DNA of 64,000 nucleotides from Flagellimonas ochracea (GTDB taxonomy: Bacteria > Bacteroidota > Bacteroidia > Flavobacteriales > Flavobacteriaceae), in NCBI RefSeq assembly GCF_009903685.1, contig NZ_JAAABI010000001.1:372001-436000 (forward strand), written 5' to 3'. The notes under the pieces were generated by a model, which worked only from the letters and a program-made list of their open reading frames with translations, was not told the origin of the DNA and searched no databases. Shown one piece after another: positions 303 through 11,106 of this stretch. The position numbers were made by a program, and so were the translations under genes. Every line of letters starts with the position of its first letter. Within the stretch, counting starts at the first letter, position 1.

Positions 303-806
303 ATGAAGATGAGTAAATTTAATTTGTTGATTTTGGGCGTGTTATTTTCATTTACCACAGTAAGGTCACAAGAGTTCAAATTAGGAGGTGGACTTTCATT
401 AGGCACTGAATCCAGTGTTGATGAAGATTTTTTAGGTGACCCAGCCTTTGGTGTAAACCTACGAGGTCTGTACAAAATAACTGAAAAATGGGGAGTTACT
501 GGAGGGGCCACCTATTTCTTTTCCAAAGCGCCTGAACCTCTCGAAAGCACCGTTTATGCATTCAATTTTGACGGAACCTATTCCTTTGTGACCAATGGTA
601 CATTGGATTTTTATGGATTGGTAGGTTTCAATGTTGGGTATATTAAGGTAAAGAACACTGAAGAAAATATTGAGGCGGATGATACCTTAACTGGAATGGA
701 ATTGGGTATTGGAATTATGACCAAGATGGGCCTCTTCTTTGAGGCCAAAGCAGATGGTGCTTTGGAACAAGGACAATTTACATTGGGTTATTTACTAAAG
801 CTATAA
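303..806 (+). CDS. Outer-membrane beta-barrel protein, porin family
   Basis: The 167-residue product starts with a signal peptide (about residues 1-22, cleavage near VRS/Q). The remainder alternates short hydrophobic and glycine or aromatic stretches and ends in LGYLLKL, as expected of a small eight-stranded outer-membrane barrel. By family resemblance it sits in the outer membrane; no substrate can be inferred. A second ATG at 309 would give an almost identical signal peptide. The next gene begins three bases after the stop, so the two are probably co-transcribed. Confidence 0.7.
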   Translation: MKMSKFNLLILGVLFSFTTVRSQEFKLGGGLSLGTESSVDEDFLGDPAFGVNLRGLYKITEKWGVTGGATYFFSKAPEPLESTVYAFNFDGTYSFVTNGTLDFYGLVGFNVGYIKVKNTEENIEADDTLTGMELGIGIMTKMGLFFEAKADGALEQGQFTLGYLLKL

Positions 807-808
807 AA

Positions 809-1545
809 ATGAAAAAGATAATTTTATTACTACTCATCATTTTTATTAGTTCCTGTTGTAAAGAAGATGATACCGCCCTAGTATGCATTTCAGACTGTAC
901 CGTGGTGCAAGGTCAAATCGTAACATCAAATGGGAAACCCTTGGCGAATATTCCAATAGAATTTAGACACAATTCAAGTCGGCCTTACAATTCTTCGATA
1001 AGGAGGATCAAAAAAGCTACAACTGATAAAAATGGCTACTATAATATGGAATTCTTTATTGAGAGTGATGAGCTGGCTCTGAAGCGAAAGGTTATTTTGA
1101 GCTAATAATCGATTATAGCAAGTTAGATGAAAAAGTATATATGAATAATAGTCCTTTCTATGACATCACTATTTCATCAATAAATAGACGTGACACAACA
1201 GGTACAATGGATTTCTACAATCCTAAAAAAGCATATATCACGGTGAATCTTAAAGGTTTTAACCCTGAAGTTGAAGAGGATTATTTTAGGGTAAGTTCCC
1301 TATATCCATCCGGTTTAAAAATAGGCCAGAATGAGTTTTTAAATTCTGAATATCAACTTGCCTACGATGGCAATAGATCTTATGCTACTTTAACGGACAC
1401 CAAGATTGACAGTATTCTGGTTGCAGAAAGTGATTATAATTTGATAAGCATATCCAAACGTAAAAATGGCGGAGAAGTTGAAGATGAATACCATGAAGTA
1501 TATGTGCCGAAGCATTCGAAATTGGAATTGACATATAACTATTAA
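809..1545 (+). pseudogene. Lipoprotein with carboxypeptidase-regulatory-like domain, frameshifted
   Basis: The first part (809-1105) encodes a lipoprotein signal peptide with lipobox ISSC, then a carboxypeptidase-D regulatory-like beta-sandwich (VVQGQIVTSNGKPLANIPI through NGYYNMEFFIES). Its frame closes at 1103-1105. A different frame is open from about 1072 and reads EAKGYFELIIDYSKLDEK directly into the second open segment that ends at 1545, which has no good start of its own. One continuous protein of about 245 residues is restored if one base is missing near 1072-1085. I see no slippery heptamer there, so a mutation or a sequencing error is likelier than programmed frameshifting. Function is unknown; it is probably a cell-surface lipoprotein, co-transcribed with the barrel protein three bases upstream. 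Confidence 0.65.
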
Positions 1546-1658
1546 AAAATGGTTCATTCTGATTTTTTTGCCCATTTAATATGTTATGTTTTTGACTTTG
1601 AACTCACATCAAAATTAGCAGCATAATCCCAAATCCATAAACTTTAATCTACTTGAAA

Positions 1659-2177
1659 ATGAAAAAATTACTGATTGCTCTTTACATTTTGTCTTTGAGC
1701 GGCTGCAGCAACGACGACAAACCCGAAAACCCGGTGGATGCCCTCCCGCCCATAACCCAGACCGGAGAAAACACCTTTGCCTGCCTGATCAATGGAAAAC
1801 CGTTTTTTCCCAGTTCAGATAGGAGAGCCTTTTATACTATTGGAAATGGGGCATACACATTAAGTATCAGTGGTTCGCGAAACGACAATCAGGGGCTTAG
1901 GACTATTCAATTATCGGCGTTAGATATAGAAGGTGGAGTCAATGAAGGAGAATACCCTCTTACGACTCGAGCAAGTGGTGGCTATAGTGCAGAATATTTT
2001 ATCGATGGAGGGCTAACTCTCGATGCTAGAACCACGGATGAAAACCCAGGTATTTTGACCATTACCCGTTTTGATCTGGAGGAATTTATCGTTTCGGGCA
2101 CCTTTGAGTTCTCGGTCAAGGACAAGGTGGGCAACATCCTGAACTTTACCGACGGCCGTTTCGACCTAAAATTTTAA
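1659..2177 (+). CDS. DUF6252-like lipoprotein, array copy 1
   Basis: The product is a lipoprotein with a short hydrophobic signal and lipobox LSGC, followed by the acidic stretch SNDDKPENPVDALPP and a globular beta-rich domain containing TFACLINGKPFF near the start and RFDLEEFIVSGTFEF near the end. This pattern (a short strand with a Cys before NGK, and a closing SGTFEF strand) resembles the Bacteroidota family DUF6252; function is unknown. I chose the ATG at 1659 over the TTG at 1653 because copy 2 can only start at the equivalent ATG. Its central segment (GSRNDNQGLRTIQLSALD) is of the type shared with copy 4. It is likely anchored in the outer membrane. Confidence 0.75.
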   Translation: MKKLLIALYILSLSGCSNDDKPENPVDALPPITQTGENTFACLINGKPFFPSSDRRAFYTIGNGAYTLSISGSRNDNQGLRTIQLSALDIEGGVNEGEYPLTTRASGGYSAEYFIDGGLTLDARTTDENPGILTITRFDLEEFIVSGTFEFSVKDKVGNILNFTDGRFDLKF

Positions 2178-2249
2178 CCCAACACTTAAAACTGAGAATT
2201 TAAAATAAAAAAAAGCACCCCCCAATCCATAAACTTAAATTTATTTAAA

Positions 2250-2774
2250 ATGAAAAAATTACTGATTACGCTTTTACCGTTTTACCTTTTGACATTTAAT
2301 GCATGCAGCAACGACGACCAACCCAAAAACCCGGTGGACAGCCTCCCGCCCATAACCCAGACCGGGGAGAACACCTTTGCTTGCCTGATTAATGGGAAGC
2401 CCTTTTTCTCGAGCAAGGATAGGCGTGCATCTTATACTGTCGCCAATGGTGCCTATGCTTTTGGAGTTTACGGTTCGAGACGTGATGAAATAGGTTTGCG
2501 TACCGTGTCGATACAAGGTATTGATGTAGACCCATTGAAAGAAGGAACATACACCCTTAAATCCGAGATAAGTGGAAATTTTAGTGGGCTTTACGGGATT
2601 GATGGAGGCCTTACCCTAGATACCGGAACTAAAGATGAAAATCCAGGCCTTTTGACCATTACCTGTTTTGACCTGGAAGAATTTATCGTTTCGGGAACCT
2701 TTGAGTTCTCCGTGAAGGATGATGAAGGCAATACCTTGAAGTTTACCGACGGCCGTTTCGACCTAAAATTTTAA
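2250..2774 (+). CDS. DUF6252-like lipoprotein, array copy 2
   Basis: The 174-residue product has the lipobox FNAC and the same N- and C-terminal blocks as the other three copies. Its N-terminal block (PVDSLPP) and pre-C-terminal segment (DTGTKDENPGLLTIT) match copy 4. The central block (GSRRDEIGLRTVSIQGID) instead matches copy 3, so the gene is a mosaic relative to its neighbours. One conserved Arg of the RFDLEEF block is Cys here (ITCFDLEEF). No enzymatic motif is visible. It lies 72 bases after copy 1 and probably belongs to the same transcript. The DUF6252 assignment is from memory of the family pattern. Confidence 0.75.
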   Translation: MKKLLITLLPFYLLTFNACSNDDQPKNPVDSLPPITQTGENTFACLINGKPFFSSKDRRASYTVANGAYAFGVYGSRRDEIGLRTVSIQGIDVDPLKEGTYTLKSEISGNFSGLYGIDGGLTLDTGTKDENPGLLTITCFDLEEFIVSGTFEFSVKDDEGNTLKFTDGRFDLKF

Positions 2775-2847
2775 TCCACTACTTAAAACTAAGAATTTAA
2801 AACTAAAAAAGCATACCCCAAATCCATAAACTTAAATCCATTTGAAA

Positions 2848-3360
2848 ATGAAAAAATTACTGATTGCCCTTTTACCATTTTACCTTTTGGCATTTAATGC
2901 CTGCAGCAACGACGACAAACCCGAAAACCCGGTGGATGCCCTCCCGCCCATAACCCAGACCGGGGAAAATACTTTTGCCTGCCTGATCAATGGGAAACCG
3001 TTTTTCTCCAGTTATAAAAGAAGTGCCTCATATTCAGGAAATAGCTTTGGTGTTAGGGGCTCAAGACGTGACGATTTGGGGCTAAGAACAGTATCGATAC
3101 GTGGTTTAGATATTGAACCAATAAGTGAGGGTAAATATCTACTTCAATCGGAGGGAAATGGAAAAATTAGTGGAATCTATTTAATTGGGGGAGGCCTTAC
3201 TCTTGATGCAGTAACCACGGATGAAGCCCCTGGCCTTTTGACCATAACCCGTTTTGATCTCGAGGAATTCATCGTCTCTGGTACTTTCGAGTTTACAGTT
3301 GTAGATGATGATGGTAACCTATACGAAATTACCGATGGCCGTTTCGACCTAAAATTTTAA
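2848..3360 (+). CDS. DUF6252-like lipoprotein, array copy 3
   Basis: The product (about 170 residues from the ATG at 2848; a TTG at 2842 is also in frame) has the lipobox FNAC. Its N-terminal block (KPENPVDALPP) and its TTDE motif agree with copy 1, whereas the central block (GSRRDDLGLRTVSIRGLD) agrees with copy 2. It is the shortest copy: it lacks several residues before the GSRRD motif where the others carry an NGAY-type insertion. Its late segment (VVDDDGNLYEI) is the most divergent of the four. It is probably a surface-exposed lipoprotein of unknown role. Confidence 0.75.
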   Translation: MKKLLIALLPFYLLAFNACSNDDKPENPVDALPPITQTGENTFACLINGKPFFSSYKRSASYSGNSFGVRGSRRDDLGLRTVSIRGLDIEPISEGKYLLQSEGNGKISGIYLIGGGLTLDAVTTDEAPGLLTITRFDLEEFIVSGTFEFTVVDDDGNLYEITDGRFDLKF

Positions 3361-3435
3361 CCCAACACTTAAAACTGAAAATTTAAAATTAAAAAAAATC
3401 ATCCCCCAAATCCATAAATTTTAATCTACTTGAAA

Positions 3436-3984
3436 ATGAAAAATCTACCATTTACCCAACACCTTTTACCCATCACCCTTTTAACCTTTTATCTGTTAAC
3501 CCTTGTAGCCTGCAGCAACGACGACAAACCGGAAAACCCTGTGGACAGCCTCCCGCCCATAACCCAGACAGGCGAGAACACCTTTGCTTGCCTGATCAAT
3601 GGGAAACCGTTTTTTTCCAGTTCTGGTAGAAGGGCTTCCTACACATTTGCGGATGGGGCCTATACCCTCAGTATAAGTGGCTGGAGAAATGATGACATCG
3701 GACTTAGGTCAATACTTTTATCATGTTTAGATATTAATGGGGGGGTAAAGGAAGGAGCTTTCCCATTAACCACTCGTATAAGCAATGGTTACAGTGCTAG
3801 ATATACAATTGGTGGAGGTCTTACCCTTGATACCGGAACTAAAGATGAAAACCCGGGTCTTTTGACCATTACCCGTTTTGATCTGGAGGAATTTATCGTT
3901 TCCGGCACCTTTGAGTTCTCGGTCATTGATGATGAAGGTAATACACTGAACTTTACCGATGGCCGTTTCGACCTTAAATTTTAA
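3436..3984 (+). CDS. DUF6252-like lipoprotein, array copy 4
   Basis: This is the longest copy (about 182 residues from the ATG at 3436; TTG at 3430 is in frame). The extra length lies in the signal peptide, which contains TQHLLPITLLTFYLLTLVAC and ends in the lipobox LVAC. Its N-terminal block (PVDSLPP) and DTGTKDENPGLLTIT segment match copy 2, while the central block (GWRNDDIGLRSILLSCLD) matches copy 1. The next gene, a secreted lipase-like protein, follows after 88 bases that carry the same type of leader, so both may be expressed together. Confidence 0.75.
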   Translation: MKNLPFTQHLLPITLLTFYLLTLVACSNDDKPENPVDSLPPITQTGENTFACLINGKPFFSSSGRRASYTFADGAYTLSISGWRNDDIGLRSILLSCLDINGGVKEGAFPLTTRISNGYSARYTIGGGLTLDTGTKDENPGLLTITRFDLEEFIVSGTFEFSVIDDEGNTLNFTDGRFDLKF

Positions 3985-4036
3985 ATAATCCCATCACCTA
4001 TAACTTAAGACTAAACATTTAAAATTTTAAAAGGCA

Positions 4037-4072
4037 GCATACCCCAAATCTTAAACTTATAACCTATAGAAA
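4037..4072 (+). repeat. Fifth copy of the array leader, in front of the lipase-like gene
   Basis: The bases before the ATG at 4073 read ACCCCAAATCTTAAACTTAT and onward, a diverged version of the leader found before each of the four lipoprotein genes. The gene behind it is unrelated to the lipoproteins, so the shared leader is either a common regulatory or translation element or the edge of the amplified segment. Confidence 0.5.
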
Positions 4073-7000
4073 ATGAAAACATTACAAACATCTTTTACCC
4101 TTTACCTTTTTGGATTTCTCTGCTGCCTTTCGGCCAATGCCCAATTGCATTTTGATCTAGAGGTCGCCAACAAGACCAACGAGGTCTTTGGCCCTTTGGA
4201 CAAAAGCAAGATACCCCACAGCATGCTATTGGACTACGGTTACGATTTTGTGGACGTGCCCAATTACGATGGCGTGTTGCGGGATAACAATTATATTGTA
4301 CCCTCCGTATTCCGTGATCTATATAATAGCGTGGTCTCCATGCGTACCTCCTTGGTGGTGCCCGAACTAGTGGATCCCATTGCCCTGGAGCAGGATTGGA
4401 AGAGCATGGCCAAGTCCCATGCCGCAAAATTTGGGAAAAAGCCCTTGACCACGGCCATCACGCTCAACGGATTGTACTACCATTATTCCCGCATTCGGCC
4501 CGATGCCCTCGATGAAGGATTGATCCAAATCATTGACGGTAAAAAATATGGTGATGTGTATAAAGGAACCAACTGGCAAAACCCCTACGAAACCAAAGAG
4601 GTGTTTGCCATCACTTTGCCGCGAACCCAAATAAGCAGTTCCACCATATCCCTATTGCTGGAAGATTCCGAATGGCGTACCAACCAGCCTACCTTGGTAG
4701 AAAGTTTTGCCGTGGACTTTGGGGATGGTGGTGGATTTCAACCCTTGGAATTGGGCACTACCCTAAACCATACGTTTGCCGAAGATGGCGATTATGTGTG
4801 GACCTTTCAATTACAACTGACCGACAATACCTTTAGGTATTGCCGCACCCCGGTAAAGATTACGGGCAAGGCCATGCAGCAGACCTTAACGGCCCGTAAC
4901 CCCGAATGCACCGAACCTTGGGAAGAAACCATTACAGCCTCCAAAACGTATCAAGGTGTAAAAGGAGTGGCTAAGTTGCAGATAGCCGCCGCTAACGAAT
5001 GTAAAACAATCAGCAAACCCCTGATCGTGGTGGAAGGTTTTGATTCTGGATTGACTGGAAATCATCCAATATATGGAGATACCGACCTTGACTATTTTTT
5101 ACGTGAAGTTGTAGATTCAGATAGTCAAGAGTTACAAAACCTAATTACAGCGGATACCGAAGAAAGTTTTGATATCATCTATGTCAATTGGGCAGATGGC
5201 ACCGATTGGTTGCAGCGCAATGCCTATGCCCTAGAGGCGGTAATCGAATGGGTCAACAGTAAAAAAGAAGATCCCACGGCGCCCAATGTGGTCTTGGGGC
5301 AAAGTATGGGCGGTGTGTTGGTCCGTTATGCCTTGCGCGATATGGAGAACAACAACCTGGACCACGATACCAGCCTTTACATTAGCCACGATGCCCCGCA
5401 CCAAGGGGCCCATGTACCCCCAGGAGCTCTGTATATGGTCCGGCATGTCCTCAACGAACTTATCACCACACCCATTGGCGATGTGTCTGTGGCCATAGCG
5501 AGTGGGGCATATCCTGTGAACGAGGGAAGAAAATTAATAGACCAACCTGCGGTACGGCAGCTTTTGATCAATTGGGTGGATGTAAACTATGAAATCAACA
5601 ACGAAACCCATAAAGCCTGGCAAGATGAACTCAATGCCATGGGCTATCCACAACAAACCTGGAACATTGCGCTCAGCAACGGTAGCCATTGTGCACAACC
5701 GTATGGCATAGAACCCGGCCAAACCTTGTTTAGGCTCCATGGTACGGGTTCCACCAGGCCATTTACGGATGTGATTACGTTTATTACTGGTACAGGATGG
5801 CTTGTAGGTGCCGCTTTGGGGGACATCCCTGCATTACTGATGGGTTTTCTGCCAGGAAATTCCAAACTCAAGACCGACTTTCAGGTATGGGCCTTTCCAG
5901 GTGGGGAAGAAGACTGGTTGTACAAAGGCTGGATCCAATACGAGAAAAAGCTGCTTTGGGTGGCTCCTTTAATGCGGACCATCACCAATCGTACCTTTTC
6001 CATAGCTGATGACAACCTATTATTGGATGATTTTCCGGGCGGGGCCATGCCGTTTATTGGCACTATTGATGAATTTGACGAATATGAAAGCAATATTTTG
6101 GCAACTTTTAACCTGAACTTGGAAGTCACTCCAGATATCAACTTCATACCCGTTACCAGCGCCTTGGATGTGGGGAGTAACAATGTCCCGTTAATTGAAG
6201 AAGACTATCTGCAGATTTATACTACCGAAAACCCACCGCCCCAAGAATTGGCCATACCTTTTGATAATTTCACCACGACTTTCGATATTTCGGGGCGAAA
6301 TGCAGCACATATTTCCTTCAATCGCACCAATGGGGATTGGTTGGCACAGGAACTCAACACGGTCTCAACTTCGTTCGATTGCACCTTTTTGTGTAATCCT
6401 GAGGCGGCGATACAGGGCAGCAAATTGCTTTGTCAGGAAGAACTGTATTTTGTTGAAGTTCCAGGAGCTGTACAAGTGCAGTGGAGTTCGAGCAATCCAG
6501 ATGCCGCCTTTCCCACCGACCCTAACAGCCCGGCAACTTTTTTCACAACACCACCCAATACCTATAGCCAACCTGTGACTATAACGGCTACGATTACTTC
6601 AGAAAGTTGCGGAGGCGAACCTGTGGTACTGGAAAAGGTGTTGCAAGTGGGAAAGCCTTCCCAACCTTCCGATTTGTTCGGTCCGGAAGTAGTATTGACA
6701 GGGGCCCTTGTAAGTTACTTTGGAGGTCCGGCCATAGGAGCGGATAGCTACCAGTGGTGGTTGCCACATCCTTTTGAAAAAGTAAATCAGTTTGACCTTT
6801 TTGGCGACAATTGGCAGGTAAAAGAAACGGCTACGAGTTATGAAAGTGTTCAAGTGTTCACTGGTTATGCGCAGAATGATGGATTGGTACAGCTTATGGG
6901 TGTCAATGAATGTGGTGTGGGTCCTGCGAGAACTTTGTACGTAGAACATGCTGGTGGCGGAAACGGCGGTGGTGGTGGAGGCGTCCCGCTGCAACCTGAC

Positions 7001-7312
7001 ACCGATTTGGACGTGCTCTCGCCAGATAGTGGGAATGGAGACGGATTGATTCTATATCCCAATATCGCCACCGAGGAAGTGACCATTGCATTGGACACCT
7101 TACCATTACTCAATGATGACCAGCAACCTACAGGAATTGTGGGTGTAACCGTATATGCACAAATGCAGCCCATTGTAAAGAAACGATTGGCCTATGCGTA
7201 TCCAGGAGTGCCATCAGTGACTTTGGACATTAGGGATTTAAACCAAGGGTATTATACCGTAGCTGTTGAAACAACGACAGGCCTATCGAGCAAAATTTTA
7301 ATTGTGGAGTAG
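4073..7312 (+). CDS. Secreted alpha/beta-hydrolase (lipase/esterase-like) with PKD-like domains and T9SS sorting domain
   Basis: The 1079-residue protein has a signal peptide (about 1-23, cleavage ANA/Q). A PKD-like segment around residue 213 (VDFGDGGGF, then HTFAEDGDYVWTF) precedes an alpha/beta-hydrolase core beginning at KPLIVVEGFDSG (about 315). The nucleophile elbow is GQSMGG with Ser411, followed by SHDAPHQGA, a pattern of lipases and PGAP1-like esterases. A second Ig/PKD-like region follows (about 770-900), then a glycine-rich linker near 960. The last 90 or so residues contain LILYPN and end in KILIVE, a type A type IX secretion C-terminal domain. The family would be exported across the outer membrane and act on ester bonds; the substrate is unknown. 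It follows the lipoprotein array and carries a similar leader. Confidence 0.8.
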   Translation: MKTLQTSFTLYLFGFLCCLSANAQLHFDLEVANKTNEVFGPLDKSKIPHSMLLDYGYDFVDVPNYDGVLRDNNYIVPSVFRDLYNSVVSMRTSLVVPELVDPIALEQDWKSMAKSHAAKFGKKPLTTAITLNGLYYHYSRIRPDALDEGLIQIIDGKKYGDVYKGTNWQNPYETKEVFAITLPRTQISSSTISLLLEDSEWRTNQPTLVESFAVDFGDGGGFQPLELGTTLNHTFAEDGDYVWTFQLQLTDNTFRYCRTPVKITGKAMQQTLTARNPECTEPWEETITASKTYQGVKGVAKLQIAAANECKTISKPLIVVEGFDSGLTGNHPIYGDTDLDYFLREVVDSDSQELQNLITADTEESFDIIYVNWADGTDWLQRNAYALEAVIEWVNSKKEDPTAPNVVLGQSMGGVLVRYALRDMENNNLDHDTSLYISHDAPHQGAHVPPGALYMVRHVLNELITTPIGDVSVAIASGAYPVNEGRKLIDQPAVRQLLINWVDVNYEINNETHKAWQDELNAMGYPQQTWNIALSNGSHCAQPYGIEPGQTLFRLHGTGSTRPFTDVITFITGTGWLVGAALGDIPALLMGFLPGNSKLKTDFQVWAFPGGEEDWLYKGWIQYEKKLLWVAPLMRTITNRTFSIADDNLLLDDFPGGAMPFIGTIDEFDEYESNILATFNLNLEVTPDINFIPVTSALDVGSNNVPLIEEDYLQIYTTENPPPQELAIPFDNFTTTFDISGRNAAHISFNRTNGDWLAQELNTVSTSFDCTFLCNPEAAIQGSKLLCQEELYFVEVPGAVQVQWSSSNPDAAFPTDPNSPATFFTTPPNTYSQPVTITATITSESCGGEPVVLEKVLQVGKPSQPSDLFGPEVVLTGALVSYFGGPAIGADSYQWWLPHPFEKVNQFDLFGDNWQVKETATSYESVQVFTGYAQNDGLVQLMGVNECGVGPARTLYVEHAGGGNGGGGGGVPLQPDTDLDVLSPDSGNGDGLILYPNIATEEVTIALDTLPLLNDDQQPTGIVGVTVYAQMQPIVKKRLAYAYPGVPSVTLDIRDLNQGYYTVAVETTTGLSSKILIVE

Positions 7313-7426
7313 ACTCTTAGAACCATTAATAAAGCACAAGTCATTTTGAAGAGAGCTAGCGACCACAAAATCCAAACCTGGGATTTCCCAATCAATTCCA
7401 TATATTTTATTTTGAAATTACAAAAA

Positions 7427-7537
7427 CTACACCCCAGTATAATTCGCTGGGGCAATTTTTTTCACCTCACTTTTGATGGCATTGTAAACTGACAGGGTCT
7501 CCATGAAATCTGCAATGGAATTTTGGGTATTTTTTAG
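7427..7537 (-). pseudogene. Duplicated 3' end of purB (about 35 codons)
   Basis: Read on the minus strand, this segment encodes KNTQNSIADFMETLS and ends in PANYTGV followed by TAG, aligning in frame with the last 35 codons of the purB gene at 8641-9984 (KITQKSIADFIETLS to PANYTGV). I count about 25 of 35 residues identical, with no stop or frameshift, and most differences are conservative. Upstream (above 7537) the similarity stops abruptly. The rest of the 7313-7689 gap holds nothing I recognise. It looks like a purB end that diverged as a working gene in another lineage before landing here, 1.2 kb from the intact copy. Confidence 0.75.
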
Positions 7538-7689
7538 GATTCCTATCAATAAATTGAGCGTTCATTGATCCAAAGGTATCATCCATCCATTTCTTTCAGA
7601 TTTTGTAAATCATATTCTTGAAATTCGTTTACCTATAGCTCATTAAAATGTGCTGTATCTAAAAGTTTAGGCAATATTGATACAAAACC

Positions 7690-8352
7690 ATGCGGATTTT
7701 TAGACCATCGGATGAGAGGCTTATAAAAAAGTTGGTAAATCATGTTTATTTCAAGGTTCAAGCCAACGGGGTAGTTAGAGTTGAGGATATGCTATACATG
7801 ATGGCCACCATTGTGGCAGTACAATGTATAGAGGTAGCAAAAGAGCTTTCAATAGACAAACATAATTTTGAACTTGGTAACGCAGTATTTCCAAAAAAAA
7901 TCAATGAAACCCTTATTGGACCAGATACTGTAGAAAATTGGAATGAATTGCCTAAGGAATGTGTTTTTGGAAGAATTAAGAACAAAATTGATAAACACTT
8001 TAACGAAACAGCCTTTCCTTCATTGACTGGAATTTTTAAAAATTATACAAAAAATGTCGATGAATCAGAATGGGAGAAAGTCACTTTGAACATTCCAGAA
8101 GATAGCATACCATCTTTATTGACTTTAAGGGCTGGGTATGAAACAAAAAAATTCGTTGATAGGCGAATAAATCTTGAAAATAACCAAAAGACGTTGACGA
8201 TAGCAATTGACTCGCTTAGCCGTGTATTGATTGAAACTAGGATAGCACTAAATCCGTCAATTGCTTTGATGATGACTTTTGAAACTATATTCGGTATGTC
8301 CAAAACAGCAACGATGGCCAACCAAAAAATGCTGAAAGGCAATCTAAAATAA
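7690..8352 (+). CDS. Hypothetical protein, orphan gene next to the purB 3' duplication
   Basis: I do not recognise this 220-residue protein. It has no signal peptide or clear membrane segment. It is rich in charged and helical stretches, with a hydrophobic run near the start (YMMATIVAVQCIEVAKEL) and another near the C-terminus (ALNPSIALMMTFETIFGM). The DNA is noticeably more AT-rich than the neighbouring genes. It lies alone between the duplicated purB 3' end and purB itself, which suggests acquired DNA. No phage, toxin, nuclease or transposase motif could be made out. Confidence 0.55.
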   Translation: MRIFRPSDERLIKKLVNHVYFKVQANGVVRVEDMLYMMATIVAVQCIEVAKELSIDKHNFELGNAVFPKKINETLIGPDTVENWNELPKECVFGRIKNKIDKHFNETAFPSLTGIFKNYTKNVDESEWEKVTLNIPEDSIPSLLTLRAGYETKKFVDRRINLENNQKTLTIAIDSLSRVLIETRIALNPSIALMMTFETIFGMSKTATMANQKMLKGNLK

Positions 8353-8465
8353 ATGAGGCATTGCCTAACAACGCCCATAATTTTGTAGGGCTGAATTTCT
8401 AATAAAGAAAACAATGAAAGAAAGCAGAGTGGATTTCTTCCGCAAGACGATTCTGTCCAATATTT

Positions 8466-8591
8466 CTAAGCCCAAATCATGGCCTGTTCTATAAGCACAA
8501 TCCGAACCTCATATTGTTTCTTGCCATTTTTGGAATAAATCACATATGAGTTGATCCAAAGCAGCCATCTATCAATCACCGAGGTATTCAT
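8466..8591 (-). other. Possible small gene or gene fragment in the purB-flanking island
   Basis: On the minus strand an ATG at 8591 opens 41 codons ending at TAG (8466-8468). The product contains VIYSKNGKKQYEVRIVLIEQ, which has the look of a genuine beta-strand segment rather than random sequence. There is no family recognition and no clear start signal, so it may be the tail of a decayed gene. The remaining bases between 8353 and 8640 show nothing else. Confidence 0.2.
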
Positions 8592-8640
8592 TCCATGCTT
8601 GTCCCGCACTTCACACTACTTTCGGAATCAAAAAAAACAT

Positions 8641-9984
8641 CTAAACCCCCGTATAATTCGCTGGGGTAATTTGTTTCAGTTCATCTTTGATCGCATCAGA
8701 AATCGAAAGGGTCTCAATAAAATCTGCAATGGACTTTTGCGTAATTTTTTCATTGGTACGGGTCAAGCCCTTTAGGGCTTCATACGGGTTGGGATATCCT
8801 TCTCGGCGAAGAATGGTCTGGATGGCCTCGGCCACCACTGCCCAGTTATCTTCCAGGTCTTGTTCAAATTTTTGTTGGTTCAAAACCAATTTGTTCAACC
8901 CTTTCAGCGTGGACTGAAATCCAACCAAAGTGTGCGCAAATGGCACTCCCACGTTTCTAAGCACAGTACTGTCCGTTAAATCACGTTGCAGTCTTGAAAT
9001 AGGTAGTTTTGCCGAAAGATGTTCAAAAAGGGCATTGGCAAGCCCTAAATTCCCTTCGGAGTTTTCAAAATCGATGGGGTTTACTTTATGTGGCATGGCC
9101 GATGAACCCACTTCACCCTTTTTTATTTTCTGCTTAAAATAGTCCATTGAAATATAGGCCCATAAATCCCGGTTCAAATCGATGATGATAGTGTTGATGC
9201 GCTTTAAGCAGTCAAATAGCGCGGCCATGTGGTCGTAATGTTCTATTTGGGTGGTAGGAAAGGAATGGTGTAAACCCAGTTTTTCTTGCACAAATTGTTT
9301 TCCGAATACTTTCCAATCAATGTTTGGAAAAGCAACCTTATGCGCATTATAGTTTCCAGTGGCGCCACCAAACTTGGCCGCACTGGGTATGTCATTCAAT
9401 AAATTGAACTGTTCTTTTAAGCGCTCCACAAATACCTCAATTTCTTTTCCGAGACGGGTAGGGGATGCTGGTTGACCATGTGTGCGTGCCAACATGGGGA
9501 TGCTTTCCCATTCCTTGGCCAGCGTTTTCAATTTTTCAAAGACTTCAAAATAAGTGGGGACATACACTTCGTTCATCGCCTCCTTTATGGAAAGGGGTAT
9601 GGCCGTATTGTTTATGTCCTGGGAGGTCAGTCCGAAATGGATAAATTCCTTATACTTTTCCAGGCCCAATGTATCAAAATGCCCCTTTATAAAATATTCA
9701 ACAGCCTTGACATCGTGGTTGGTGGTCTTTTCAATTTTCTTGATTTCGTTAGCATCATCCTGTGAAAAATCAATGTAGATTTTTTGAAGTTTCGAAAACT
9801 GTAAAGCATCAAAATCGGCCAATTGGGGCAATGGAATTTCACAAAGCGCTATAAAATATTCAATTTCAACCTGAATACGATATTTGATCAATGCCGCTTC
9901 GGAGAAATAATGCTGAAGGCCTTCCGTTTTGTTTCTATATCGACCATCAATAGGAGAGATGGCATTAAGTGGGTTCAAAGACAT
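8641..9984 (-). CDS. purB: Adenylosuccinate lyase
   Basis: The 447-residue enzyme splits adenylosuccinate to AMP and fumarate, and SAICAR to AICAR, in purine synthesis. The fumarase/aspartase superfamily signature is intact as SSAMPHKVNPIDFENSEGN, and the N-terminus (LNAISPIDGRYRNKT) and the THGQPASPTRLGKE segment match the PurB family. The length is normal. On the minus strand it follows a 190-residue conserved protein with a 46-base gap. A hairpin overlapping the last codons probably ends transcription. A diverged duplicate of its final 35 codons lies 1.2 kb further on at 7427-7537. Confidence 0.97.
   Translation of the reverse strand: MSLNPLNAISPIDGRYRNKTEGLQHYFSEAALIKYRIQVEIEYFIALCEIPLPQLADFDALQFSKLQKIYIDFSQDDANEIKKIEKTTNHDVKAVEYFIKGHFDTLGLEKYKEFIHFGLTSQDINNTAIPLSIKEAMNEVYVPTYFEVFEKLKTLAKEWESIPMLARTHGQPASPTRLGKEIEVFVERLKEQFNLLNDIPSAAKFGGATGNYNAHKVAFPNIDWKVFGKQFVQEKLGLHHSFPTTQIEHYDHMAALFDCLKRINTIIIDLNRDLWAYISMDYFKQKIKKGEVGSSAMPHKVNPIDFENSEGNLGLANALFEHLSAKLPISRLQRDLTDSTVLRNVGVPFAHTLVGFQSTLKGLNKLVLNQQKFEQDLEDNWAVVAEAIQTILRREGYPNPYEALKGLTRTNEKITQKSIADFIETLSISDAIKDELKQITPANYTGV
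8646..8666 (-). terminator. Hairpin overlapping the purB stop region
   Basis: Read on the minus strand, CCCCAGCGAATTATACGGGG, built from the codons for the last residues of PurB, can fold into a short C/G stem just before the TAG, followed by a run of eight T. The duplicate at 7432-7452 keeps an even better stem (CCCCAG/CTGGGG) with five T after it. The gene end thus probably doubles as an intrinsic terminator. Confidence 0.5.
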
Positions 9985-10030
9985 TTCATCAAGTTTTTGA
10001 AAGCTCCAAAGATACTTAAACTCGCAGAGT

Positions 10031-10603
10031 TTAGTGCTCTAATAGCACAAGCATGTCCAAGGTTTTTTTTGCTCGGTTTTTATATCCGGCGGTACCAGAG
10101 CCTATAGTATTTTCCAAAACAAGCTTTAATTCAGGATGGACCCAATCAAATTTGAAACCCAAATAATATAGGCTCGTCATGGAAAATACTTTAGGAGCAA
10201 CATTTATGGGGCTTATTAACCAATCGAAACAGGCAGTCAATATTTTTTCCAAATGGCCATCCGAGACATGTTTATGGAAGAAAGCATCCTTTTTTTTGAA
10301 ATAAGTGACACATACCATTTCACACACATGGGCCATGGGCCTAATGCATGAATCGGTTTGCAATTGTGCTAGACCTTCTGTGAAATCATCCATAAAGGGA
10401 ATAAGATAAACCAACTTTTTTCGCATCAGATGGTCAAAAGTCCAACTTGCGTTAAAGTCTCCTTCCTTATCTTCTCGCAAAACTTCCTGAAAGAGCCTTT
10501 TAGTGAGCGAGGGCTCCTGTTCCAGTTCAGTGACCAATCGTTCAATTTTTGCTTTGGAAAGCCGCCCAGAATTTAATGTGCTATGCAGTTGCGCTTCAGT
10601 CAA
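10031..10603 (-). CDS. Conserved purB-adjacent protein, HEAT-repeat-like
   Basis: The 190-residue product has no signal or membrane segment. It is predicted mostly helical, with repeated hydrophobic helix pairs (for instance SWTFDHLMRKKLVYLIPFMD and ILTACFDWLISPINVAPKVF), like HEAT or armadillo folds. Similar proteins occur beside purB in Flavobacteriaceae and are sometimes mislabelled as adenylosuccinate lyase because of that position; it has none of the lyase motifs. It lies directly upstream of purB and is probably co-transcribed. The function is unknown; a scaffold or PurB-associated role is only a guess. Confidence 0.65.
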   Translation of the reverse strand: MTEAQLHSTLNSGRLSKAKIERLVTELEQEPSLTKRLFQEVLREDKEGDFNASWTFDHLMRKKLVYLIPFMDDFTEGLAQLQTDSCIRPMAHVCEMVCVTYFKKKDAFFHKHVSDGHLEKILTACFDWLISPINVAPKVFSMTSLYYLGFKFDWVHPELKLVLENTIGSGTAGYKNRAKKTLDMLVLLEH

Positions 10604-10632
10604 AAAAATCTATTTTTACAGAAATAGTGACG

Positions 10633-11106
10633 ATGAAATTAGCAAAAAAAATAGCAATAGTGTTGTTGGTCATTTTTGTTGGCATGCAATTTTACAGACC
10701 CGATAAAAATGTGGCCAACGGCGATTATGTAACTGCCTTTGAAAGCGAAACCCAACCTGGTCCAGAGGCACAAAAGATATTGAAAACAACCTGTTATGAC
10801 TGCCATAGTGATAACACAAACTATCCTTGGTACAACAACATCGCCCCAATTTCATATTGGTTGGATGATCACATCGAAGAAGGTAAGGAGCATTTGGATT
10901 TTTCGGATTGGGGCAATTATTCCGTTAAAAAGAAGGATCACAAATTGGAAGAGCTTGTTGAAGAGGTTGAGGAAGGAGAAATGCCGCTAAAAGAGTACAC
11001 TTGGACCCACAAAGAGGCGCGTTTGACCGAAGCTCAGAAAAAGGCATTGATGGACTGGGCCATGGAAGCTAGATCAATGTATCAAACAACTGGTTCACTA
11101 GAGTAG
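10633..11106 (+). CDS. Haem-binding domain protein, membrane-anchored, CxxCH
   Basis: The 157-residue protein starts with a hydrophobic anchor (residues 7-19), then contains CYDCHSDNTNYPWY, a c-type haem attachment motif CxxCH at residues 54-58, and ends in an acidic helical region. This is the pattern of the small Bacteroidota haem-binding domain family, expected in the periplasm; its redox partner is unknown. I chose the ATG at 10633 because an upstream in-frame start at 10549 would overlap the divergent gene and place non-signal sequence before the anchor. Its 3' end overlaps the convergent sirtuin gene by 38 bases. Confidence 0.8.
   Translation: MKLAKKIAIVLLVIFVGMQFYRPDKNVANGDYVTAFESETQPGPEAQKILKTTCYDCHSDNTNYPWYNNIAPISYWLDDHIEEGKEHLDFSDWGNYSVKKKDHKLEELVEEVEEGEMPLKEYTWTHKEARLTEAQKKALMDWAMEARSMYQTTGSLE

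What the first reader, a model, noticed from the sequence alone, without database searches (positions are those of the whole stretch)
1653..3984. Mosaic lipoprotein array: the ends and the middle of four paralogues group differently
Four tandem paralogues share near-identical N- and C-terminal thirds. By eye, the N-terminal blocks group as copies 1+3 (PVDALPP, with matching codons) and 2+4 (PVDSLPP), and the segment before the C-terminus groups the same way (TTDE in 1+3, GTKDENPGLL in 2+4). The central segment groups instead as 1+4 (LSISG, RND, PLTTR) and 2+3 (SRRD, GLRTVSI). Conflicting groupings within 500 bases are what gene conversion or cassette exchange between copies would leave. A variable centre between constant ends on a surface lipoprotein suggests a diversity-generating locus, perhaps against phage, predators or for binding ligands.
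Basis: partly seen in the sequence, partly recalled or inferred. Interest (0 to 1): 0.75.

Follow-up and report, generated by a model that had tools for sequence, protein, structure and literature searches.

The report
Mosaic lipoprotein array beside secreted lipase
Four recombined copies of a surface lipoprotein gene sit in front of a gene for a secreted lipase-like enzyme, and the same pairing in many related bacteria looks like a store of shuffled antidote genes for that enzyme, although nobody has tested this.

Summary
Four tandem lipoprotein genes (1653-3984) are mosaics: the N-block tree is 1+3 | 2+4, the centre tree 1+4 | 2+3; each segment rejects the other's tree (AU p 0.040 and 0.003), and single-tree simulations reach the contrast in 1-3 of 400 runs. 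The C-terminal block as a whole is unresolved.

The larger finding lies downstream. The lipoproteins (Riean_0653 family) stand directly before a 1079-aa secreted GxSxG hydrolase (4073-7312), probably T9SS cargo. All 11 of 397 family genomes with an enzyme match over 500 bits have the lipoprotein just upstream. Arrays of up to six copies occur; in 11 of 48 multi-copy loci enzyme fragments separate copies. Lipoprotein ORFs are mostly intact (148 to 14 broken), enzymes mostly broken (25 to 45). One cassette (lipoprotein centre plus enzyme start) is 90-100% identical between genera inside unrelated flanks.

This resembles orphan-immunity arrays. Best reading: secreted lipase plus surface lipoprotein acting as antidote, possibly also activator (0.5). 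Against: the enzyme-adjacent copy does not match the enzyme best (p 0.73), and a Riemerella family member is needed for hemolysis. Function is untested.

The parts
1653..2177 (+). Lipoprotein copy 1 (Riean_0653 family / DUF6252); centre block about 1808-1990
2250..2774 (+). Lipoprotein copy 2; centre block about 2408-2587
2842..3360 (+). Lipoprotein copy 3; centre block about 3006-3173
3430..3984 (+). Lipoprotein copy 4, next to the enzyme gene; centre block about 3615-3797; AlphaFold2 beta-rich fold, mean pLDDT 89.8
2178..4072 (+). Intergenic leaders (2178-2249, 2775-2841, 3361-3429, 3985-4072) similar to each other; the one before the enzyme gene resembles those between the copies
   Evidence: alignment of spacers, by eye
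4073..7312 (+). Secreted PGAP1/LCAT-like alpha/beta hydrolase, 1079 aa; GQSMGG motif with invariant Ser411 (codon 5303-5305); PKD-like stretches and a weak T9SS sorting tail at the C-terminus
303..806 (+). Small outer-membrane beta-barrel protein that accompanies the alternative lipoprotein in G002 and G026
809..1545 (+). Alternative upstream lipoprotein gene (about 245 aa in relatives), here split into ORFs 809-1105 and 1141-1545 by a frameshift; intact copies stand directly before the enzyme gene in G002 (two tandem copies) and G026 (one)
8641..9984 (-). 447-aa ORF (recognised as adenylosuccinate lyase from memory); its counterpart follows the enzyme gene in G036, G053, G026 and G037, fixing the locus

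Best explanation
The array is the lipoprotein half of a two-gene unit: a probably surface-exposed lipoprotein (LIP) encoded just upstream of a secreted, probably T9SS-exported, lipase-like hydrolase (HYD). Shown by sequence: linkage, tandem copies, mosaic centres, enzyme fragments between copies, and cassette sharing between genera. Inferred: the enzyme attacks membranes of competitors or other cells; LIP, on the producer's outer surface, binds it through the variable centre and protects the producer (antidote), perhaps also activating or holding it. Homologous recombination in the conserved LIP N block and around the enzyme start adds or swaps LIP(+enzyme-start) cassettes. Older enzyme copies are truncated or lost while old LIPs are kept as spare immunity, as in orphan-immunity arrays of T6SS loci.
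For: Linkage: in 397 family genomes, the 11 with an enzyme match over 500 bits all have LIP within about 190 bp upstream on the same strand (one search scored two candidates per genome). In the same genus 7 of 9 enzyme-bearing genomes (of 60) have LIP. The pairing also occurs outside the family (L233, L236, L241); 6 of 15 fetched regions hold a full enzyme.
Arrays and fragments: 48 of 75 named loci have two or more LIP ORFs (split copies counted as ORFs). After a LIP the next ORF is enzyme-like in 63 cases: 26 full and 37 partial; 28 of the 37 start at enzyme position 20 or less; 17, at 11 loci, are followed by another LIP.
Retention: 148 intact LIP ORFs against 14 pieces, 25 intact enzyme ORFs against 45 pieces. 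Four LIP-bearing genomes (G191, G393, G342, G370) show no enzyme catalytic domain at E 1e-5. LIPs at loci without a full enzyme are under purifying selection: dN/dS 0.06 (L120/L126, Bizionia), 0.08 (L065/L066), 0.15 (L119/L146).
Exchange: L126 and L090 share LIP centre, C block, spacer and about 60 enzyme codons at 90-100% inside flanks at about 30-55%. The enzyme is mosaic between species too.
GxSxG serine invariant in 25 of 25 aligned enzymes. Export-signal-like acidic stretch. T9SS component SprA present in this genome.
Against: The enzyme-adjacent LIP does not track the enzyme better than a random copy from the same array (p = 0.73; 17 enzymes at 16 loci), so one-to-one cognate pairing is not shown. 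Linkage is one-sided: 59 of the 397 genomes have a LIP over cut-off, and 48 of these had no enzyme over 500 bits. Riean_0653, the Riemerella gene that names the family, is needed for hemolysis and its purified protein is not hemolytic (PMC7881567, passages): this points to a positive role of LIP, not only protection. I did not see that gene's sequence or neighbours. No toxicity or inhibition has been measured. The loci were found through LIP, and the enzyme gene is about six times longer and a split enzyme counts as several pieces, so the intact/broken comparison is biased towards my reading. The window enzyme's own sorting tail is below Pfam's cut-off (14.3 of 27 bits). Two same-genus genomes (G002, G026) pair the enzyme with a different lipoprotein.
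Confidence: 0.5

Rival explanations
1. LIP is a positive partner of the secreted hydrolase (foldase, activator, secretion escort or surface anchor) and not an antidote; variable centres follow the enzyme or its substrates.
For: Riean_0653 transposon mutants of Riemerella have greatly reduced hemolysis, a plasmid copy of the gene restores it almost completely, and the recombinant protein is not a hemolysin (PMC7881567, passages). LIP centre identity correlates with enzyme N-domain and catalytic-domain identity (Spearman 0.73 and 0.72, 40 pairs), more than the C block (0.62, 0.61), N block (0.56, 0.52) or signal peptide (0.23, 0.22). A T6SS lipase immunity protein is known to do both jobs (PMC10294624, passages).
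Against: A pure helper should decay when its enzyme is lost; LIPs at loci without a full enzyme are intact with dN/dS 0.06-0.15, and four genomes with LIPs show no enzyme catalytic domain. Arrays of up to six diverged helpers are not obviously needed.
Confidence: 0.27
2. One reading: LIPs are surface receptors or antigens diversified against phage, predators or for ligands; the enzyme neighbour is incidental.
For: Surface-export-like signal; the centre has the highest mean entropy (2.76 bits; N 1.20, C 1.84); 35 of 35 arrays with variable centre; arrays without an enzyme exist, and 48 of 59 LIP genomes had no close enzyme.
Against: Linkage of every strong enzyme to LIP in 397 genomes, and enzyme fragments between copies. 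No PADLOC match for the four copies or the enzyme.
Confidence: 0.1
3. Ordinary concerted evolution of tandem duplicates: short identical ends are homogenised by conversion while a weakly constrained centre drifts; no adaptive meaning.
For: N block has low dS and the centre high dS in the window. The centre is also the fastest block between unrelated loci (mean nt identity 0.39 against 0.62 for N and 0.53 for C), so much of the contrast is simply rate.
Against: Centres 97-98% identical between Bizionia and another genus on different signal peptides need transfer, not drift. Purifying selection on whole LIPs.
Confidence: 0.13

Closest known systems
Orphan immunity-gene arrays of Vibrio cholerae T6SS clusters (PMC5361080; passages read)
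   Same: Tandem immunity genes kept after effectors are displaced; a displaced effector end among them; mosaic genes through homologous recombination and horizontal transfer.
   Different: There orphan immunity genes lie in the 3' region after the effector-immunity module; here the lipoprotein precedes the enzyme and the spare copies lie 5', with enzyme 5' fragments. A T6SS link was not tested here, the copies are one homologous family, and toxicity is unproven.
T6SS lipase effectors and their lipoprotein immunity proteins (Tle/Tli; PMC10294624 passages; PMC9860674 seen in a search listing only)
   Same: Lipase-type enzyme with a lipoprotein partner; one Tli both neutralises and activates.
   Different: T6SS delivery there. 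Here the enzyme family carries a T9SS-type tail and LIP has a surface-export-like signal; LIP has no convincing match among solved structures by fold or profile.
Riean_0653 family (NCBIfam NF052634), Riemerella hemolysis factor (PMC7881567, passages)
   Same: Same protein family by curated model.
   Different: The passages seen do not mention an adjacent hydrolase, an array or mosaic copies.
TANFOR polymorphic toxins of Bacteroidetes (PMC7073777, outline and two sections read)
   Same: Proposed T9SS-linked toxins of the same phylum with adjacent immunity genes; PKD and sorting-tail domains enriched nearby.
   Different: No TANFOR match in the window enzyme; its hydrolase core is conserved across the family and not swapped for unrelated toxin domains.

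Membership tests
Riean_0653 family (NF052634) | Whole-protein score over curated cut-off of 57 bits | tested here: met
   144-152 bits in 4 of 4 copies
Pfam DUF6252 (PF19765) | Score over gathering cut-off 27.2 | tested here: inconclusive
   3 of 4 copies above; copy 3 at 24.1
T9SS cargo (the enzyme) | C-terminal sorting domain | tested here: inconclusive
   Window protein 14.3 bits, below cut-off 27; 18 of 25 aligned members match Por_Secre_tail at E 0.01, the window's not among them; family profile matches a solved sorting domain, 8glk, E 5.5e-6; SprA present in the genome
Active serine lipase/esterase | Conserved GxSxG nucleophile; measured activity | tested here: inconclusive
   Gly409, Ser411 and Gly413 invariant in 25 of 25; activity not testable here, Asp/His not assigned
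Surface-exposed Bacteroidota lipoprotein | Lipobox Cys followed by an acidic export signal at +4/+5 | tested here: met
   Window copies read C-S-N-D-D; D at +4 in 115 and at +5 in 121 of 167 LIPs with a recognisable lipobox, of 181 examined; signal described in PMC5080379 (passages); exposure itself not measured
Effector-immunity pair | Conserved adjacency of enzyme and partner gene | tested here: met
   11 of 11 genomes with an enzyme over 500 bits; but 2 of 9 same-genus enzymes have another lipoprotein
Effector-immunity pair | Partner neutralises the enzyme | not testable with these tools
   needs experiment
Effector-immunity pair | Adjacent partner co-varies with its enzyme better than other copies of the array | tested here: not met
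   p = 0.73 over 17 enzymes at 16 multi-copy loci
Classical polymorphic toxin | Constant delivery part with exchangeable, unrelated toxin domains | tested here: not met
   Catalytic core homologous in all 25 aligned proteins, which were collected by homology; exchange is between homologous segments
Diversity-generating retroelement | Reverse transcriptase with template/variable repeat | not tested
   No reverse transcriptase search was made

The most novel reading that the evidence does not exclude
A T9SS-based antagonism system spread over Flavobacteriales and other Bacteroidota, in which surface lipoproteins form exchangeable, recombining immunity arrays against a family of secreted lipases, with cassettes (lipoprotein centre plus enzyme start) passed between genera as ready-made immunity.
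Probability: 0.33. Interest if true: 0.85.

Novelty: new variant of a known kind. Interest (0 to 1): 0.62.

Why it matters
A role of T9SS in competition between bacteria is left to future work in the TANFOR paper (PMC7073777, section read). A conserved secreted lipase with tandem, recombining lipoprotein partners gives a specific and testable candidate, and would give a role to the little-known Riean_0653/DUF6252 family. The arrays are also a natural record of cassette exchange between genera.

Tried and rejected
Single tree plus uneven rates: rejected for N block against centre; not rejected for the C block. One-to-one cognate pairing of the adjacent copy: not supported. Fold of LIP: no PDB match at E<=0.001; best row E 0.054, TM 0.17; the profile search gave six chains at E 0.045-0.48, zinc-finger proteins by their names. 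Enzyme model: mean pLDDT 68, top Foldseek rows are fibronectin-like domains, one esterase at rank 36 (9j1e, E 1.2e-6); not relied on. Anti-phage families: none at E 1. Classical polymorphic toxin: defining domain swap not met. BSAP-5i immunity similarity of neighbouring small lipoproteins: far below cut-off. Searches listed no paper whose title or abstract start describes this pairing. PMC10288586 passages were not relevant.

Rows dropped before counts: one search reduced 213 LIP ORFs to 177 distinct sequences, which with the window's four gives 181; one search found a lipobox in 167 of 181, and its pattern mis-places the Cys in some; one search left out 3 ORFs at locus edges and enzyme matches starting beyond model position 700. 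One search's flag for a full enzyme is wrong for L090, which does hold one, so I do not count the L090 pairs as enzyme-less. One search found LIP directly upstream of 39 of 45 distinct fetched proteins counted as full enzymes and added the window's pair (40); of the six without, L045 and L047 have the other lipoprotein, L055 two further lipoproteins, and L069, L143 and L054 are shorter proteins that the rule let in.

Full report
Observation. The four genes are present at the stated coordinates and align with more conserved ends and a variable centre. Of 50 informative nucleotide sites, 22 of 30 inside alignment nt 186-368 group 1+4 against 2+3, while 13 of the 20 outside group 1+3 against 2+4. 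Permutation gives p 0.006, and single-tree simulation with the observed local divergence reaches the contrast in 1-3 of 400 runs in each of five settings. Topology tests reject the alternative trees for the N block (AU 0.040; SH 0.064, so modest) and for the centre (AU 0.003), and reject nothing for the C part. So the N-block/centre conflict is well supported; the claim for the C-terminal third holds only for a short stretch of 5 sites.

Relatives of the four copies. Within the genus, window copies 1 and 4 have centres of the same type as L103 (Muricauda lutisoli) and L104 copy 2 (Flagellimonas aquimarina): 0.66-0.73 nt identity. Copies 2 and 3 share another type with L106 (0.62-0.65). Yet the N block of copy 3 is closest to L103 (0.97), whose centre is of the other type. 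Centre types therefore look older than the species, while N blocks coalesce recently (inference).

What the array belongs to. The copies match the NCBIfam Riean_0653 family at 144-152 bits. The next gene, 4073-7312, is a 1079-aa secreted protein with a PGAP1/LCAT-like domain (weak in Pfam for the window protein; PGAP1 in 22 of 25 relatives), an invariant GxSxG motif, PKD-like stretches and a T9SS-type tail (18 of 25 relatives; window protein below cut-off). In 99 genomes searched, 9 of the 60 of the same genus carry the enzyme with its catalytic region; 7 of these have lipoproteins and 2 (G002, G026) have a different 245-aa lipoprotein in the same position. One genome (G051) has a split lipoprotein and no enzyme catalytic region. 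The window carries both lipoprotein kinds, the second one frameshifted. In 397 family genomes, all 11 with an enzyme match over 500 bits have the lipoprotein directly upstream. Weaker enzyme matches also do in G417, G186, G199, G108, G229 and G485; for most other weak matches, many of them shorter or C-terminal only, I did not check. Conversely 59 of the 397 genomes have a lipoprotein over cut-off, and 48 of these showed no enzyme over 500 bits.

Array anatomy. Among 75 named loci, 27 have one LIP ORF, 26 two, 12 three, 4 four, 5 five and 1 six; 47 hold some piece of the enzyme and 25 a full one (some loci are cut by contig ends, and split copies count twice). The order LIP-stub-LIP-stub-LIP-enzyme is seen in L165 and L236, and a longer, broken form in L128. 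Of 37 partial enzyme ORFs following a LIP, 28 begin at the enzyme start and 4 at positions 250-290, near the start of the catalytic part; some of the 37 are long pieces of a split enzyme. In 35 of 35 arrays with two or more full copies, N and C blocks are more alike than the centre; the nearest relative lies in the same array for 70 of 103 copies by N block but 44 of 103 by centre.

Exchange. Of 41 between-locus pairs with centre identity over 0.7, 8 have a centre more alike than the N block by more than 0.04. L120 (Bizionia paragorgiae) against another L090 copy shows a tract ending at the LIP stop; L117/L127 is similar, but their genera are not both known. The enzyme is mosaic as well: among four genus members, informative sites at nt 1261-1620 of the alignment favour window+G002 (26 against 4 for window+G036), and sites at nt 1801-2700 favour window+G036 (71 against 8).

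Function. Surface exposure is suggested by the acidic stretch after the Cys, which resembles the lipoprotein export signal of PMC5080379 (passages). The AlphaFold2 model is confident (mean pLDDT 89.8) and mostly beta, with the highest mean entropy in the central block, and has no PDB relative at E<=0.001. Retention of intact LIPs where the enzyme is broken or missing, with purifying selection, argues for an antidote role. The Riemerella data (PMC7881567, passages) argue for a positive role in a hemolytic activity. A dual role has precedent in a T6SS lipase immunity protein (PMC10294624, passages). The co-variation test is mixed: the centre tracks the enzyme best of all blocks (0.72-0.73), but the adjacent copy is no better than a random copy (p 0.73). 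I therefore give the antidote (or antidote-activator) reading 0.5.

Known and new. The evolutionary pattern is close to the V. cholerae orphan-immunity arrays (PMC5361080, passages), in mirror order. I found no paper for DUF6252 and one for Riean_0653; the broader searches listed nothing that describes this pairing, as far as titles and abstract starts show. The library holds open-licence papers only.

Noticed in passing
window 809-1545: Alternative lipoprotein gene split by a frameshift; its 5' part resembles one tandem copy in G002 (L045) and its 3' part looks more like the other copy, so it may be mosaic too (by eye).
   Followed up: partly
L055:4273-5575 and 5699-10663: Two tandem lipoprotein-like genes without a family match at the cut-offs precede a 1654-aa PGAP1-like protein with a strong T9SS tail: a third kind in the same position.
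   Followed up: partly
L053:5678-7677: A 130-aa lipoprotein-like gene precedes a trypsin-like protease with a T9SS tail; lipoprotein before secreted enzyme may be a wider rule.
   Followed up: no
L173: Two LIP-enzyme units in one locus, with longer enzymes of 1379 and 1398 aa.
   Followed up: no
L128, L135, L157: In L128 and L157 a LIP stands between an enzyme N-domain ORF (to about position 256) and an ORF of the later enzyme part; in L135 LIPs are followed by fragments starting at 271-277. This hints at a modular boundary in the enzyme.
   Followed up: partly
L048:6927-10784 (G037): One lipoprotein copy and the enzyme gene are each split into two ORFs.
   Followed up: no
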